DNA of 20,035 bases. Source: a virus. The stretch's first letter is position 1. Each line of letters starts with the position of its first letter. A program made the position numbers and the translations under genes. Location: positions 1-20,035 of the IMG/VR virus record IMGVR_UViG_3300049026_000017. One strand, 5' to 3'. This document shows positions 64 to 14,880 of the stretch, piece after piece. The notes under the pieces were generated by a model. That model ran no database searches, was not told where the DNA came from, and saw nothing but the letters and a program-made list of their open reading frames with translations.

Positions 64-113
64 AAGACTCTGTTTTTTGTTCAGATAACATTTTTTGTTG
101 CTGTAAGAGTCTT
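64..113 (-). promoter_or_regulatory. AGAC-stem / ACAGCAA RNA motif, copy 1
   Basis: Directly after the CCA end of tRNA-Asp the minus-strand RNA forms an 8-base-pair stem, 106-113 (AAGACTCT) with 64-71 (AGAGTCTT). ACAGCAA follows one base after the 5' arm and the loop is A-rich. The same arrangement occurs at 14820-14880, 13275-13310, 11408-11499 and 3602-3679. It would be the 5' end of whatever message lies beyond the left edge once the tRNA is processed. The function is unknown. Confidence 0.6.
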
Positions 114-116
114 AAA

Positions 117-193
117 TGGCGACTCGTATGGGATTTGAACCCATGATCTCATGCGTGACAGGCATGCACATTGAACCGCTATGCTAACGAGCC
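117..193 (-). tRNA. tRNA-Asp (GUC)
   Basis: Complete cloverleaf with encoded CCA. Acceptor GGCTCGT pairs with ACGAGTC, discriminator G, anticodon loop CTGTCAC gives GUC, T-loop TTCAAAT. It sits 4 bases after the stop of the 54-residue gene at 198-362. Confidence 0.95.
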
Positions 194-197
194 ATAT

Positions 198-362
198 TTA
201 TTTATCTGGTCTACGGAGATACGAACACTGTACTTTGACTTCAAGTCCAAAATCTATACGCACAATACATCCTACAACAGCATATCGGACAAATTCTACT
301 TCCATATCTGCACCTGTTTGCGGATCACGTGCAATCAGTATTTCACCTGCTACAAAGTTCAT
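198..362 (-). CDS. Small phage protein, 54 aa
   Basis: Not recognised. The start at 362 is chosen because GAAAGGA stands about 8 bases upstream; the longer reading frame to 428 has no comparable ribosome binding site. The protein begins MNFVAGEILIARD and has alternating hydrophobic and charged segments (VEFVRYAVVG, VRIDFGLEVKV) that suggest a small beta-rich, probably SH3-like fold. It ends 4 bases before tRNA-Asp and was probably made from a mixed tRNA/mRNA transcript. No signal peptide or membrane segment is visible. Function unknown. Confidence 0.75.
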   Translation of the reverse strand: MNFVAGEILIARDPQTGADMEVEFVRYAVVGCIVRIDFGLEVKVQCSYLRRPDK

Positions 363-431
363 ATGAATATCCTTTCTTACTCGGCACCACTTGCCTTTTT
401 TCGCAGATCTTGCAGAGGATAAAGGCAAGAA

Positions 432-511
432 AACCTGAGTCTTTTTTCTGTATGTACCGTGTGGTATTTACTCCGCGCAGTATATACAAGGCAAAAGTCT
501 AAACCTGAGTC
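432..511 (-). repeat. Direct repeat GACTCAGGTTT, two copies
   Basis: GACTCAGGTTT occurs at the end of the 101-residue gene (501-511, including its stop codon) and again 69 bases downstream at 432-442. Between them lies a GC-rich block, ACTGCGCGGAGT, around 470-481. This looks like a small duplication at a gene end, or an old recombination scar. No gene is visible in this gap. Confidence 0.45.
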
Positions 512-804
512 CAAGAATATGATTCAATAGCGTCTTTAGCGTCTTTCAATCCACAACTTGTAATCTCCCGGAATTCCTTAATAGCTTGTATCTTACCTAA
601 ACCATTCGCATACGCATTACGTACCTTTTCAAACTGCTTATATGTTAGTGTGTATGACATCCCATTATTATCAGTAAAACGCGTATTAAATACTACAGGA
701 TAGTCACGAATAAAATTAAGCGTATGTTGTACGGCGTCAAAACCCCATGTACTAATCAACTCTTCGACACGATCCAGCAAAACAACCTTATTACCGCTAT
801 TCAT
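499..804 (-). CDS. Protein with ribosomal L7/L12 C-terminal-like motif, 101 aa
   Basis: The start at 804 follows an AAAGGAA site 5-6 bases upstream; the longer frame to 864 would run into tRNA-Glu. The last third (about residues 71-95, KIQAIKEFREITSCGLKDAK followed by DAIES) matches the helix-turn-helix signature of the C-terminal domain of ribosomal protein L7/L12 (KxxVIKxVRxxTGLGLKEAK). In bacteria that domain recruits translation GTPases to the ribosome. The N-terminal 70 residues are not recognised. Because it sits in a tRNA array, a role in tuning translation is possible, but this is inference; the motif also occurs in phage proteins of unknown function. Confidence 0.8.
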   Translation of the reverse strand: MNSGNKVVLLDRVEELISTWGFDAVQHTLNFIRDYPVVFNTRFTDNNGMSYTLTYKQFEKVRNAYANGLGKIQAIKEFREITSCGLKDAKDAIESYSWTQV

Positions 805-831
805 GACAGTTCCTTTCATAGTAAAAATAAA

Positions 832-908
832 TGGTACTGGTGAACGGATTCGAACCGTCGTCATCCTGATTGAAAGTCAAGCGTACTAAACCACTATACT
901 ACACCAGC
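832..908 (-). tRNA. tRNA-Glu (UUC)
   Basis: Acceptor GCTGGTG pairs with CACCAGT, A73 and CCA are encoded, anticodon loop CTTTCAA gives UUC, T-loop TTCGAAT. It is the first tRNA downstream of the promoter at 1031-1059 and is preceded by a structured leader. Confidence 0.95.
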
Positions 909-1024
909 ATATATTCGTAAGTTAGGTCGAGTCCATTCCAGTCGCTACACTGTGATTACGATTACGATATTAGCTATATCTACAAGCTCACTATGCACTC
1001 AACTACTTGTTTGGACTAACTTAC
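909..1024 (-). ncRNA. Structured leader RNA upstream of tRNA-Glu
   Basis: This gene-free stretch folds as a multibranched RNA. A 9-base-pair closing stem joins 1016-1024 (GTAAGTTAG) with 917-925 (CTAACTTAC). Inside are hairpins ACAAG/CTTGT (about 982-1005), GATAT/ATATC (about 965-979) and CAGT/ACTG (about 939-953). The predicted start site of the promoter at 1031-1059 is base 1024, exactly the first base of the closing stem, and the structure ends just before tRNA-Glu. RNase P cleavage at the tRNA would release it as a discrete RNA of about 116 bases. Function unknown. Confidence 0.5.
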
Positions 1025-1030
1025 AAACGG

Positions 1031-1059
1031 AGTATATCACGACCATGTATCAATGTCAA
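1031..1059 (-). promoter_or_regulatory. Sigma-70 promoter, TTGACA-17-TATACT
   Basis: The -35 TTGACA is at 1054-1059 and the -10 TATACT at 1031-1036, with a 17-base spacer. The -35 overlaps the stop codon of the gene at 1056-1265. It drives the leader RNA, tRNA-Glu and genes to the left. Confidence 0.85.
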
Positions 1060-13586: not shown

Positions 13587-13624
13587 CTTTTTACGGTTTC
13601 AGTATCTTAACCGTCAAACTGTTT

Positions 13625-13641
13625 TAATTCGCCGCGAATTA
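13625..13641 (-). repeat. Perfect palindrome TAATTCGC-C-GCGAATTA at a gene end
   Basis: An 8-base inverted repeat with a single central base directly follows the stop of the 108-residue gene. It could be an operator for a dimeric protein. As RNA it would need a larger loop. It may also be a variant of the GC-rich motif found at other gene ends. Confidence 0.4.
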
Positions 13642-13968
13642 TTACCGCATGTGTACCCGTTGTCGCTTAATAAACTCATTCATTAGCGCAATGAGTGTAC
13701 GATCAGTAGGTGCACCAGTTAACGCTATAGCAAGATTTACATCATTGAGATTACGCAATTCAGCTACCCATTCAACATAAAGCTTGATTAATGCATTGCG
13801 TACATGTCGTGTATCCATGTCGCTAATCTTGATTAGACCGTGTGTAGTCGAGTTGTAGTGAATACCGTCACCATGAAACGGTACAGTTAGGCCAAAAGCT
13901 CTAGCTGCGGTTTGTATCTGCTCTATTGTTCCTTCGATTACAACACCGTTTGACAATCTCACTTGCAT
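13642..13968 (-). CDS. Small phage protein, 108 aa
   Basis: Not recognised. GGAAGGA precedes the ATG at 13968. The first 30 residues are a beta hairpin then a helix (MQVRLSNGVVIEGTIEQIQT), a pattern seen in several small phage early proteins where a short beta unit is followed by 'xxIQxxxxxxG'. The middle is helical (VRNALIKLYVEWVAELRN) and the end is basic (NEFIKRQRVHMR). It lies between tRNA-Pro and tRNA-Trp. No function can be assigned. Confidence 0.8.
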   Translation of the reverse strand: MQVRLSNGVVIEGTIEQIQTAARAFGLTVPFHGDGIHYNSTTHGLIKISDMDTRHVRNALIKLYVEWVAELRNLNDVNLAIALTGAPTDRTLIALMNEFIKRQRVHMR

Positions 13969-14000
13969 GTGTTTATCCTTCCTTTAATATGTTTTTAGCG

Positions 14001-14076
14001 TGGTCTAGGTAATAGGACTCGAACCTACTCTATACGCGCCCAAAGCGCAGGTGCTACCATTAAACACTATACCTAG
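14001..14076 (-). tRNA. tRNA-Pro (UGG)
   Basis: Acceptor CTAGGTA pairs with TACCTAG and has the C1-G72 pair of bacterial proline tRNA; A73, CCA; anticodon loop TTTGGGC gives UGG. Confidence 0.93.
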
Positions 14077-14393
14077 ATATACTACCTGTTCCTCATATTA
14101 CGCGCCGCAACAGAAAAGCCCCGCGCTATATCTCCGCTTATTTTCTAGCGTCTACGATATAGAAAAGAATGATTATTAAAGGGAATAACTAATAAATAAA
14201 ATAATAAGTTATTAGTATAGGGTATTACGTTTATATGCAGCTAAGGTATAGAGCTATTCACTACTATATTACGCTCATATAATACAACCCTCATAGGCGA
14301 CTCCTTATAAGAACTAGTATGTTACAAAGACCGCGATATATCACCTACAATCATCTCACTAGTTCATACGGTTGATTATACTAGTAACTTATA
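14077..14393 (-). other. Gene-poor structured stretch with a 17-codon frame
   Basis: Inverted repeats fill this gap: CTATATC/GATATAG enclosing CGCT/AGCG (about 14131-14165), AATAACT/AGTTATT (about 14184-14214) and GAACTAGT/ACTAGTTC (about 14311-14364). A 17-codon frame at 14241-14294 (MRVVLYERNIVVNSSIP) has a strong AAGGAG and could be a leader peptide. It shares MRVVL with the 30-residue protein at 10816-10908. Confidence 0.4.
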
Positions 14394-14477
14394 TGGTGCG
14401 TATGATAGGAATCGAACCTATAAAGCCGAAGCGAAGCTTTTACAGAGCTTTAAACTCACCACCTGTTTAACATACGC
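14394..14477 (-). tRNA. tRNA-Tyr (GUA)
   Basis: Class II tRNA with an extended variable arm. Acceptor GCGTATG pairs with CATACGC, A73, CCA; anticodon arm AAGCT-CTGTAAA-AGCTT gives GUA. Confidence 0.94.
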
Positions 14478-14483
14478 ATATAT

Positions 14484-14560
14484 GGTGGAGATAACGAGAG
14501 TCGCACTCGTGTCTTGCGCACTTAGTTTTACACTTGCTTACTTATAGCTAAGCCATTTAT
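14484..14560 (-). pseudogene. tRNA remnant with intact T-arm and CCA
   Basis: CCA, a perfect T-arm stem (ACGAG/CTCGT, loop TGCGACT with G at position 55) and a possible variable arm GTG/CAC remain. The 5' acceptor strand (expected GGAGATA) and a clear anticodon arm are missing. A decayed, perhaps class II, tRNA. Confidence 0.45.
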
Positions 14561-14600
14561 TTCAGCATCGTTACGCAATCGAAGCCTATATATCCCCATC

Positions 14601-14792
14601 TTATAGATTAATGACATAGATGCCAAATTTTATGATAACTGCAAAACATACAATCCACAGAAAATCACCAAACGTTCTTAGAACTACTTTAATAAGCCAC
14701 GGCACATTATCATATGGTCTAGGATCAGAACGAACCATCTCTATAAAGAAAGATATACCCGTAAACAAGATTACCCATTCCCAAAAACTCAT
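14601..14792 (-). CDS. Two-span membrane protein, 63 aa
   Basis: The start at 14792 follows GAAAGGA; the 12-codon upstream extension lies in the leader. The product begins MSFWEWVILFTGISFFIEMV, a membrane segment. A charged loop (RSDPRPYDNVP) follows, then a second hydrophobic segment (TFGDFLWIVCFAVIIKFGIY). The short hairpin topology resembles small phage membrane proteins of unknown role; a holin function is possible but the lysis cassette lies elsewhere. Its leader carries copy 2 of the ACAGCAA motif, directly after tRNA-Met. Confidence 0.78.
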   Translation of the reverse strand: MSFWEWVILFTGISFFIEMVRSDPRPYDNVPWLIKVVLRTFGDFLWIVCFAVIIKFGIYVINL

Positions 14793-14819
14793 ATGTGTAT
14801 CCTTTCTAAGAAAATGTTC

Positions 14820-14880
14820 TAGACTCATTGTATTTTTTTTTCGTAATAAAAAATTTGTTTTTGATTGCTGTTAGAGTCTA
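14820..14880 (-). promoter_or_regulatory. AGAC-stem / ACAGCAA RNA motif, copy 2
   Basis: Two bases after the CCA of tRNA-Met, TAGACTC (14874-14880) pairs with GAGTCTA (14820-14826), with ACAGCAA just inside and an A/U-rich loop. Processing of the tRNA would leave this stem at the 5' end of the message for the 63-residue membrane protein. Confidence 0.6.

What the first reader, a model, noticed from the sequence alone, without database searches (positions are those of the whole stretch)
64..14880. Recurring RNA motif: covarying stem followed by ACAGCAA
Four copies (64-113, 13275-13310, 11408-11499, 14820-14880) share WAGAC, four variable bases, then ACAGCAA, and a fifth (3602-3679) keeps the layout with a different stem. 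Within each copy the variable bases pair with a downstream strand that has changed to match (AAGACTCT/AGAGTCTT, TAGACTC/GAGTCTA, TAGACCTAT/ATAGGTCTA, TAGACA/TGTCTA). Two copies directly follow a tRNA CCA end, one is in the leader of the Ro-like gene and one is the arm of the Y-RNA-like element. Inference: a shared protein-binding or 5'-protecting RNA element, possibly recognised by the Ro-like protein.
Basis: partly seen in the sequence, partly recalled or inferred. Interest (0 to 1): 0.85.

Follow-up and report, generated by a model that had tools for sequence, protein, structure and literature searches.

The report
Family of phage Y RNAs
This phage carries four short folded RNAs sharing one tag (a rewritten stem followed by ACAGCAA) that recurs beside the gene for a Ro-like RNA-binding ring protein in phages of many hosts; they are very probably that protein's partner "Y RNAs", and in related phages some carry what looks like a copied piece of a tRNA, often its anticodon arm.

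Summary
Four of the five reported copies are real, all on the minus strand (63-113, 11407-11499, 13274-13310, 14819-14880). A covariance model built only from other phages finds them at E 8e-11, 8e-7, 1e-5 and 6e-13. The fifth (3602-3679) scores 0 bits and is rejected. The element is a family-wide signature, W-A-G-R-Y-N3-4-ACAGCAA...-R-Y-C-T-W-G. Around 160 Ro-like genes in viral and bacterial contigs, ACAGCAA is about 25-fold enriched in the 1 kb upstream on the sense strand, and 79% of those copies carry a stem of 7 bp or more. Orthologous copies in two syntenic relatives change both stem strands together. The linked 492-residue protein (DUF2828/DUF7788) is predicted with high confidence to have the Ro fold. 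Best reading: phage Y RNAs. Stem plus ACAGCAA is the Ro-binding handle; the interior is an interchangeable module: T/D-arm tRNA mimic, plain loop or, in relatives, a hairpin with an exact tRNA anticodon loop (29 of 105 short elements versus 1.3 in shuffles). One copy forms the ro mRNA leader, suggesting autoregulation. Phage Y RNAs are known in outline; I found no report of this signature or of anticodon-arm mimicry in the papers searched. Ro binding is inferred.

The parts
63..113 (-). Short Y-type element: stem AAGACTCT/AGAGTCTT, ACAGCAA, A-rich interior; starts 3 nt after the CCA end of tRNA-Asp
   Evidence: Pattern, fold, independent covariance model 46.5 bits, E 7.8e-11, tRNA position
11407..11499 (-). 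Y RNA with tRNA-like module: stem TAGACCTAT/ATAGGTCTA, ACAGCAA, then T-arm-like (ATTGGTTCGATTCCAAT), a hairpin and D-arm-like (GCCTATTGGTAGGC), the same order as the YrlA consensus; ends 4 nt before tRNA-Gln
   Evidence: Fold, covariance model E 7.5e-7, orthologue in L016 with GGCGCAT/ATGCGCC stem, YrlA consensus for comparison
13274..13310 (-). Shortest element, in the leader of the ro gene: stem TAGACA/TGTCTA with ACAGCAA; ends 16 nt before the ATG
   Evidence: Covariance model E 1.2e-5; leader elements in L016, L017, L019, L020 with compensatory stems; 39 of 160 loci have an element ending within 60 nt of ro
14819..14880 (-). Short Y-type element: stem TAGACTC/GAGTCTA, ACAGCAA; starts 2 nt after tRNA-Met; possible hairpin with 7-nt loop ATTACGA
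   Evidence: Covariance model 54.2 bits, E 5.5e-13; orthologue after tRNA-Met in L016 and a corresponding element in L017 with changed stems
11779..13257 (-). ro: 492-residue Ro-like protein (DUF2828 + DUF7788, vWA domain with metal-site residues D288, S290, S292, T360, D392)
   Evidence: Pfam, PHROG 850 RNA-binding protein, AlphaFold pLDDT 90.3, Ro autoantigen 1yvp Z 20.6 over 408 residues, invariant residues
13326..13354 (-). Promoter-like site TTGACA-17-TAGTAT, 15 nt upstream of the ro-leader element
   Evidence: the number of such sites in the region is not above chance, so position and quality only; a similar site in L016
117..193 (-). tRNA-Asp upstream of element 63-113
   Evidence: ARAGORN
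14883..14956 (-). tRNA-Met upstream of element 14819-14880
   Evidence: ARAGORN
11328..11402 (-). tRNA-Gln directly downstream of the Y RNA at 11407-11499
   Evidence: ARAGORN

Best explanation
The elements are phage Y RNAs: small RNAs bound by the phage's Ro-like ring protein. The terminal stem with the single-stranded ACAGCAA on its 5' side is the Ro-binding handle (inferred), kept while the stem's own bases drift in pairs. The interior is an interchangeable module: permuted T-arm/D-arm tRNA mimicry at 11407-11499, a plain or anticodon-arm-like hairpin in the short forms. Copies next to tRNAs are probably cut out of tRNA transcripts; others start at their own promoter. The 37-nt copy in the ro leader would let Ro bind its own message just ahead of the ribosome-binding site, most likely feeding back on its translation or stability. 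The tRNA mimicry points to a job in tRNA or small-RNA surveillance during infection. Shown: the element family, its structure, its link to ro and to tRNA arrays, and a predicted Ro fold. Inferred: binding, processing, autoregulation and function.
For: Model built without the window finds the four copies. Around 160 ro genes, 217 of 275 ACAGCAA in the 1 kb upstream on the sense strand carry a stem of 7 bp or more, against 0 of 7 on the other strand and about 10% elsewhere. Strict elements 100:6 and 131:0 on the ro strand. Compensatory changes at orthologous places. Found by DNA pattern alone, 11 of 15 element-bearing contigs carry ro, 0 of 9 element-free ones. Predicted Ro fold. T-arms in 43 of 128 long elements against 0.26 in shuffles. 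In Listeria phage CKA15 three very highly transcribed unannotated regions lie within 2 kb upstream of the homologous gene and were proposed as Y RNAs (PMC12282133).
Against: No binding data. No element was detected in ro-carrying Vibrio PG216 and Aeromonas AsFcp_1, and in Salmonella PHA46 the elements lie about 150 kb from ro. Classical TROVE loci lack the handle and Rfam YrlA does not match the elements, so the handle is not that of the best studied Y RNAs. The A4 rows were chosen for having a stem, so the pair counts are biased upward.
Confidence: 0.85

Rival explanations
1. The elements are processing or stabilising hairpins of tRNA operons, unrelated to Ro: a stem that marks cleavage sites or protects ends of tRNA transcripts.
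For: Seventeen of 237 elements start within 6 nt of a tRNA 3' end; two window copies do; in PHA46 copies sit in a tRNA cluster far from ro.
Against: Most elements lie just upstream of ro, also in contigs without tRNAs in reach (L057, L028). tRNA-carrying T4, without ro, has no match below E 0.05 (SPO1 likewise). Interiors carry tRNA-like modules, which a cleavage mark would not need.
Confidence: 0.07
2. The elements are only cis-regulatory leaders: Ro, or another factor, binds them in mRNAs to control translation, and no free RNA is made.
For: One copy forms the ro leader; 39 of 160 loci have an element ending within 60 nt of the ro start.
Against: Many loci have several tandem elements, some downstream of ro (Lumos, BigCheese, EC6, Klebsiella), some beside tRNAs with no reading frame next to them; tRNA-like interiors fit a free RNA better.
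Confidence: 0.05
3. The elements are transcription terminators or attenuators.
For: Short inverted repeats between genes.
Against: No terminator-like site is found at the elements in 11300-15200; the loops are long, no U run follows, and the ACAGCAA plus stem-sequence constraint is unexplained.
Confidence: 0.02
4. The elements are copies of a small mobile repeat.
For: Several copies per genome within tRNA arrays.
Against: Only the handle is shared; interiors and stem bases differ, copies keep orthologous places in relatives, and the strand is fixed relative to ro.
Confidence: 0.01

Closest known systems
Bacterial Y RNAs (YrlA of Salmonella, Rfam RF02553; Y RNA of Deinococcus)
   Same: Long-range terminal stem, encoded beside a Ro protein, and in one window copy T-arm then D-arm tRNA mimicry as in the YrlA consensus (PMC8394870).
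   Different: No Rfam match on any copy; the YrlA consensus lacks WAGRY/ACAGCAA; several copies per genome, most of them short without T/D arms; one in the ro leader; copies fused to tRNA ends.
Phage Y RNAs predicted near Ro60 genes (Chen et al. 2014, cited in PMC12282133 for mycobacteriophages)
   Same: Probably the same class of RNA; mycobacteriophages Lumos and BigCheese carry three elements each just after ro.
   Different: The 2014 paper is not held, so I could not check whether it describes this handle. The short, leader and anticodon-arm forms and the wide host range are from this work.
Putative Y RNAs of Listeria phage CKA15 (PMC12282133)
   Same: Highly transcribed regions within 2 kb upstream of the homologous Ro-like gene, near tRNAs; the related phages LMTA-57 and cka17 have three elements there.
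   Different: The paper proposes Y RNAs as one option, without a motif or structure; its transcript coordinates were not mapped here.
Ro60 / TROVE proteins (1yvp, 2nvo, 9l5y)
   Same: Predicted ring-plus-vWA fold along almost the whole chain, metal-site residues kept.
   Different: 10-18% identity to solved Ro proteins; Pfam names it DUF2828 and DUF7788, not TROVE.

Membership tests
Bacterial/phage Y RNA | Encoded near a Ro60-like gene | tested here: met
   One copy is in the ro leader, one directly follows ro in the window; enrichment around 160 ro genes
Bacterial/phage Y RNA | 5' and 3' ends paired in a conserved stem | tested here: met
   Four window copies; compensatory changes at orthologous places; pair counts (rows preselected)
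Bacterial/phage Y RNA | At least one RNA per genome with a tRNA-like domain | tested here: met
   Met in the window by 11407-11499; T-arm elements in 43 of 128 long elements, in 37 of 114 loci
Bacterial/phage Y RNA | Bound by Ro protein | not testable with these tools
   Needs pull-down or binding assay
Rfam YrlA (RF02553) | Match to the covariance model over the gathering score | tested here: not met
   No match on any of the four copies, even at E up to 5; the one weak hit, 4546-4665, spans two tRNAs
Y RNAs of classical TROVE-type bacterial loci | Shared Ro-binding handle with WAGRY-ACAGCAA | tested here: not met
   No match of model R1 near 20 TROVE genes from two phyla; ACAGCAA with a stem at chance level
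Ro60 protein family | HEAT-repeat-like ring plus vWA fold | tested here: met
   All ten best structural matches are Ro or TROVE proteins, Z 11.5 to 20.6; model pLDDT 90.3
Ro60 protein family | Pfam TROVE (PF05731) match | tested here: not met
   Not among matches up to E 10; matches DUF2828 and DUF7788 instead
Ro60 protein family | Metal-site motif DxSxS...T...D in the vWA domain | tested here: met
   D288, S290, S292, T360 and D392 invariant in 38 homologues; assignment as metal site from general knowledge
Intrinsic terminator | G+C-rich hairpin with short loop followed by a U run | tested here: not met
   None at the elements in 11300-15200

The most novel reading that the evidence does not exclude
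Phage Y RNAs are a set of Ro-held mimics of tRNA parts: one type shows T and D arms, the short type shows an anticodon arm with a real anticodon loop. Held by the Ro ring, the anticodon arms act as decoys or sensors for anticodon-cleaving nucleases used in anti-phage defence, complementing the phage's own tRNA set.
Probability: 0.3. Interest if true: 0.9.

Novelty: new variant of a known kind. Interest (0 to 1): 0.72.

Why it matters
Ro proteins and Y RNAs are medically well known (Ro autoantigen), but what they do is poorly understood and bacterial examples are few. A simple signature exposes Y RNAs in phages of standard laboratory hosts (E. coli Felix O1-type phages, M. smegmatis Lumos, B. 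subtilis FADO), so binding, autoregulation and effect on infection can be tested directly. The anticodon-arm hairpins, if real mimics, would link Ro particles to the tRNA-cleavage arms race between bacteria and phages and would be a new kind of RNA counter-defence.

Tried and rejected
Fifth copy 3602-3679: 0 bits, dropped. A further weak hit at 15140-15176 (E 0.47) is a plain inverted repeat without the handle on that strand. The weak Rfam YrlA match at 4546-4665 spans two ordinary tRNAs. Near-identity search of annotated phages found nothing; the single-sequence viral scan found nothing, the alignment query did. ACAGCAA alone is not enriched in the window, so the claim rests on handle plus stem. 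No element was detected in Vibrio PG216 or Aeromonas AsFcp_1; none near ro in PHA46, but two in its tRNA cluster. Promoter-like sites in the window are not above chance in number. Chen et al. 2014 and the 2020 review on bacterial Ro60 are not held, so priority for the signature could not be checked. CKA15 transcript coordinates could not be mapped onto elements. The window's own short elements do not carry an exact library anticodon loop; the L016 orthologue of 14819-14880 does by eye (TTTTC-TTTACAC-GAAAA, the loop of the window's own tRNA-Val).
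Full report
1. Observation. The minus strand carries WAGAC-N4-ACAGCAA four times and nowhere else (0.17 expected with one mismatch; none of 100 shuffles reaches four). Each copy pairs its 5' strand with a downstream strand rewritten to match: AAGACTCT/AGAGTCTT (63-113), TAGACCTAT/ATAGGTCTA (11407-11499), TAGACA/TGTCTA (13274-13310), TAGACTC/GAGTCTA (14819-14880). The word ACAGCAA on its own is unremarkable in the window. The fifth copy (3602-3679) has a different stem; stems of this size follow roughly 10-20% of such words by chance, and the model gives it 0 bits.

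2. Surroundings. The window is a 20-kb virus record with 23 ARAGORN tRNAs and a 492-residue gene at 11779-13257 minus. Element 63-113 starts 3 nt after tRNA-Asp, 14819-14880 starts 2 nt after tRNA-Met, 11407-11499 ends 4 nt before tRNA-Gln, and 13274-13310 lies 15 nt after a promoter-like TTGACA-17-TAGTAT and 16 nt before the start codon.

3. The protein. It matches DUF2828 and DUF7788 and PHROG 850 'RNA-binding protein', not Pfam TROVE. An AlphaFold model from 38 homologues has pLDDT 90.3. The ten best structural matches are all Ro or TROVE proteins, led by Ro autoantigen with RNAs, 1yvp, Z 20.6 over 408 residues, and including the Ro60 of Thermus phage phiLo. The presumed metal-site residues are invariant. 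At least 668 phage records carry a homologue.

4. Relatives. In the two syntenic contigs L016 and L017 (59% and 52% identical Ro) the same places carry the element with both strands changed. After tRNA-Met: GACTC/GAGTC in the window, GGCTC/GAGCC in L016; in L017 the corresponding element, after a CCA end that ARAGORN does not call, is GACACT/AGTGTC. Ro leader: GACA/TGTC, GACGC/GCGTC (L016, with ACAGCTA), GATGCT/AGCATC (L017). Between ro and tRNA-Gln: GACCTAT/ATAGGTC, GGCGCAT/ATGCGCC (L016); L017 has a stem there without ACAGCAA. L018-L020 also carry leader elements, some with a changed ACAGCAA. This is covariation at orthologous positions, not selected for.

5. Family-wide test. Around 160 ro homologues in viral contigs and prokaryote genome contigs, every ACAGCAA was scored for a stem of 7 bp or more with no demand on stem sequence. 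Within 1 kb upstream on the ro strand there are 275 (1.76 per kb), 217 with a stem; on the other strand there are 7, none with a stem; permuted words stay at background. With the stricter signature, elements split 100:6 and, in a second set, 131:0 between ro strand and opposite strand. Named phages with the element beside ro include Bacillus vB_BcoS-136 and FADO, Listeria LMTA-57 and cka17, Staphylococcus BE22, Enterococcus A2, Campylobacter F361, Klebsiella KP13-16, Escherichia EC6, and Mycobacterium Lumos and BigCheese.

6. Model and specificity. Thirty short elements from other contigs (A4) gave model R1; six of the eight pairs show changes on both sides, though these rows had been chosen for having a stem. 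R1 finds the four window copies. In whole genomes of 15 ro-carrying phages nearly all matches lie within a few kb of ro; T4 and SPO1, without ro among the hits, have none below E 0.05. In Salmonella phage PHA46 the copies sit in a tRNA cluster about 150 kb from ro, which fits trans-acting RNAs. Contigs fetched only by a DNA pattern behave alike: 11 of 15 with an R1 element carry ro, 0 of 9 without one do (Fisher P 0.0006; two element-bearing contigs under 8 kb not counted). R1 finds nothing near 20 classical TROVE genes, so the handle belongs to the DUF2828 branch as far as tested.

7. Interior modules. Forty-three of 128 long elements contain a T-arm (0.26 in shuffles). In the window the order is T-arm then D-arm, as in the YrlA consensus; in some relatives the order is that of a normal tRNA. 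Short elements often contain a hairpin with a 7-nt loop: CTNNNAA loops in 14 of 60 (0.36 in shuffles), then 8 of 45 (0.19) in a second set. Loops identical to a real tRNA anticodon loop from the same collection of contigs occur in 29 of 105 short elements against 1.3 in shuffles; a few of these come from near-identical contigs. The anticodons are varied (Asn, Lys, Tyr, Ser, Arg, Gly and others). In the window the evidence is weaker: 14819-14880 has a loop ATTACGA on an A/T stem, and its L016 orthologue has TTTACAC, the loop of the window's own tRNA-Val(UAC).

8. Expression. Several relatives have a perfect TTGACA-17-TATAAT ending 5-8 nt before the element, so transcription should start at the stem. 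Seventeen of 237 elements start within 6 nt of a tRNA end, and 39 of 160 loci have one ending within 60 nt of ro. In Listeria phage CKA15 three very highly transcribed unannotated regions lie within 2 kb upstream of the homologous gene, that protein is found in purified virions, and the authors suggested Y RNAs as one explanation (PMC12282133).

9. Interpretation. The simplest account is that these are the Y RNAs of a phage branch of Ro proteins, with the stem and ACAGCAA as the Ro handle. Published background: bacterial Y RNAs tether Rsr to PNPase and mimic tRNAs (PMC8394870, PMC7790460). Inferred here: binding, autoregulation through the leader copy, and a role in tRNA surveillance or as decoys. 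That the tRNA-like part of YrlA might compete for an anticodon nuclease has been suggested for Salmonella (PMC7790460); anticodon-arm hairpins would make that idea sharper.

10. Verdict. New variant of a known kind. Firm: a real, widespread structured RNA family tied to ro. Likely: Y RNAs. Open: function, and the meaning of anticodon-arm mimicry.

Noticed in passing
window 14483-14597 (-): A roughly 115-nt tmRNA-like element (Rfam RF00023 45.1 bits, just under the cut-off of 47, E 3.6e-15) with tmRNA-like ends but little room for a message part; a similar sequence follows the tRNA-Met element in L016.
   Followed up: partly
window 3443-3511 (-) and 3068-3125 (-): tRNA-like matches in Rfam that ARAGORN does not call, possibly degenerate tRNAs.
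   Followed up: no
window 15138-15178: A long perfect inverted repeat (AAGACACCTATA...TATAGGTGTCTT) between genes, found as a weak model hit.
   Followed up: no
window 2089-2808 (-) and 10012-10518 (-): Two HNH endonuclease-like genes within the tRNA array.
   Followed up: no
window 5947-6834 (-) and 6750-7532 (-): Two adjacent genes whose DNA reads as similar repeats of one another, with hydrophobic N-terminal ends; possibly a duplicated secreted protein. Seen by eye only.
   Followed up: no
window 7880-8545 (-): Papain-like cysteine protease domain in a phage gene (PF00112, E 1.9e-5).
   Followed up: no
L227-L306: The same Ro branch with its elements is common in genome contigs of gut Clostridia, Synergistaceae and others; whether these are prophages was not checked.
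   Followed up: partly
L350, L352, L353, L354: Classical TROVE genes in some genomes of one phylum also lie beside large tRNA arrays, though without the ACAGCAA element.
   Followed up: no
L013 986-1084: Rfam 'drum' RNA (RF02958) in the tRNA region of Listeria phage LMTA-57, not overlapping the Y-type elements.
   Followed up: no
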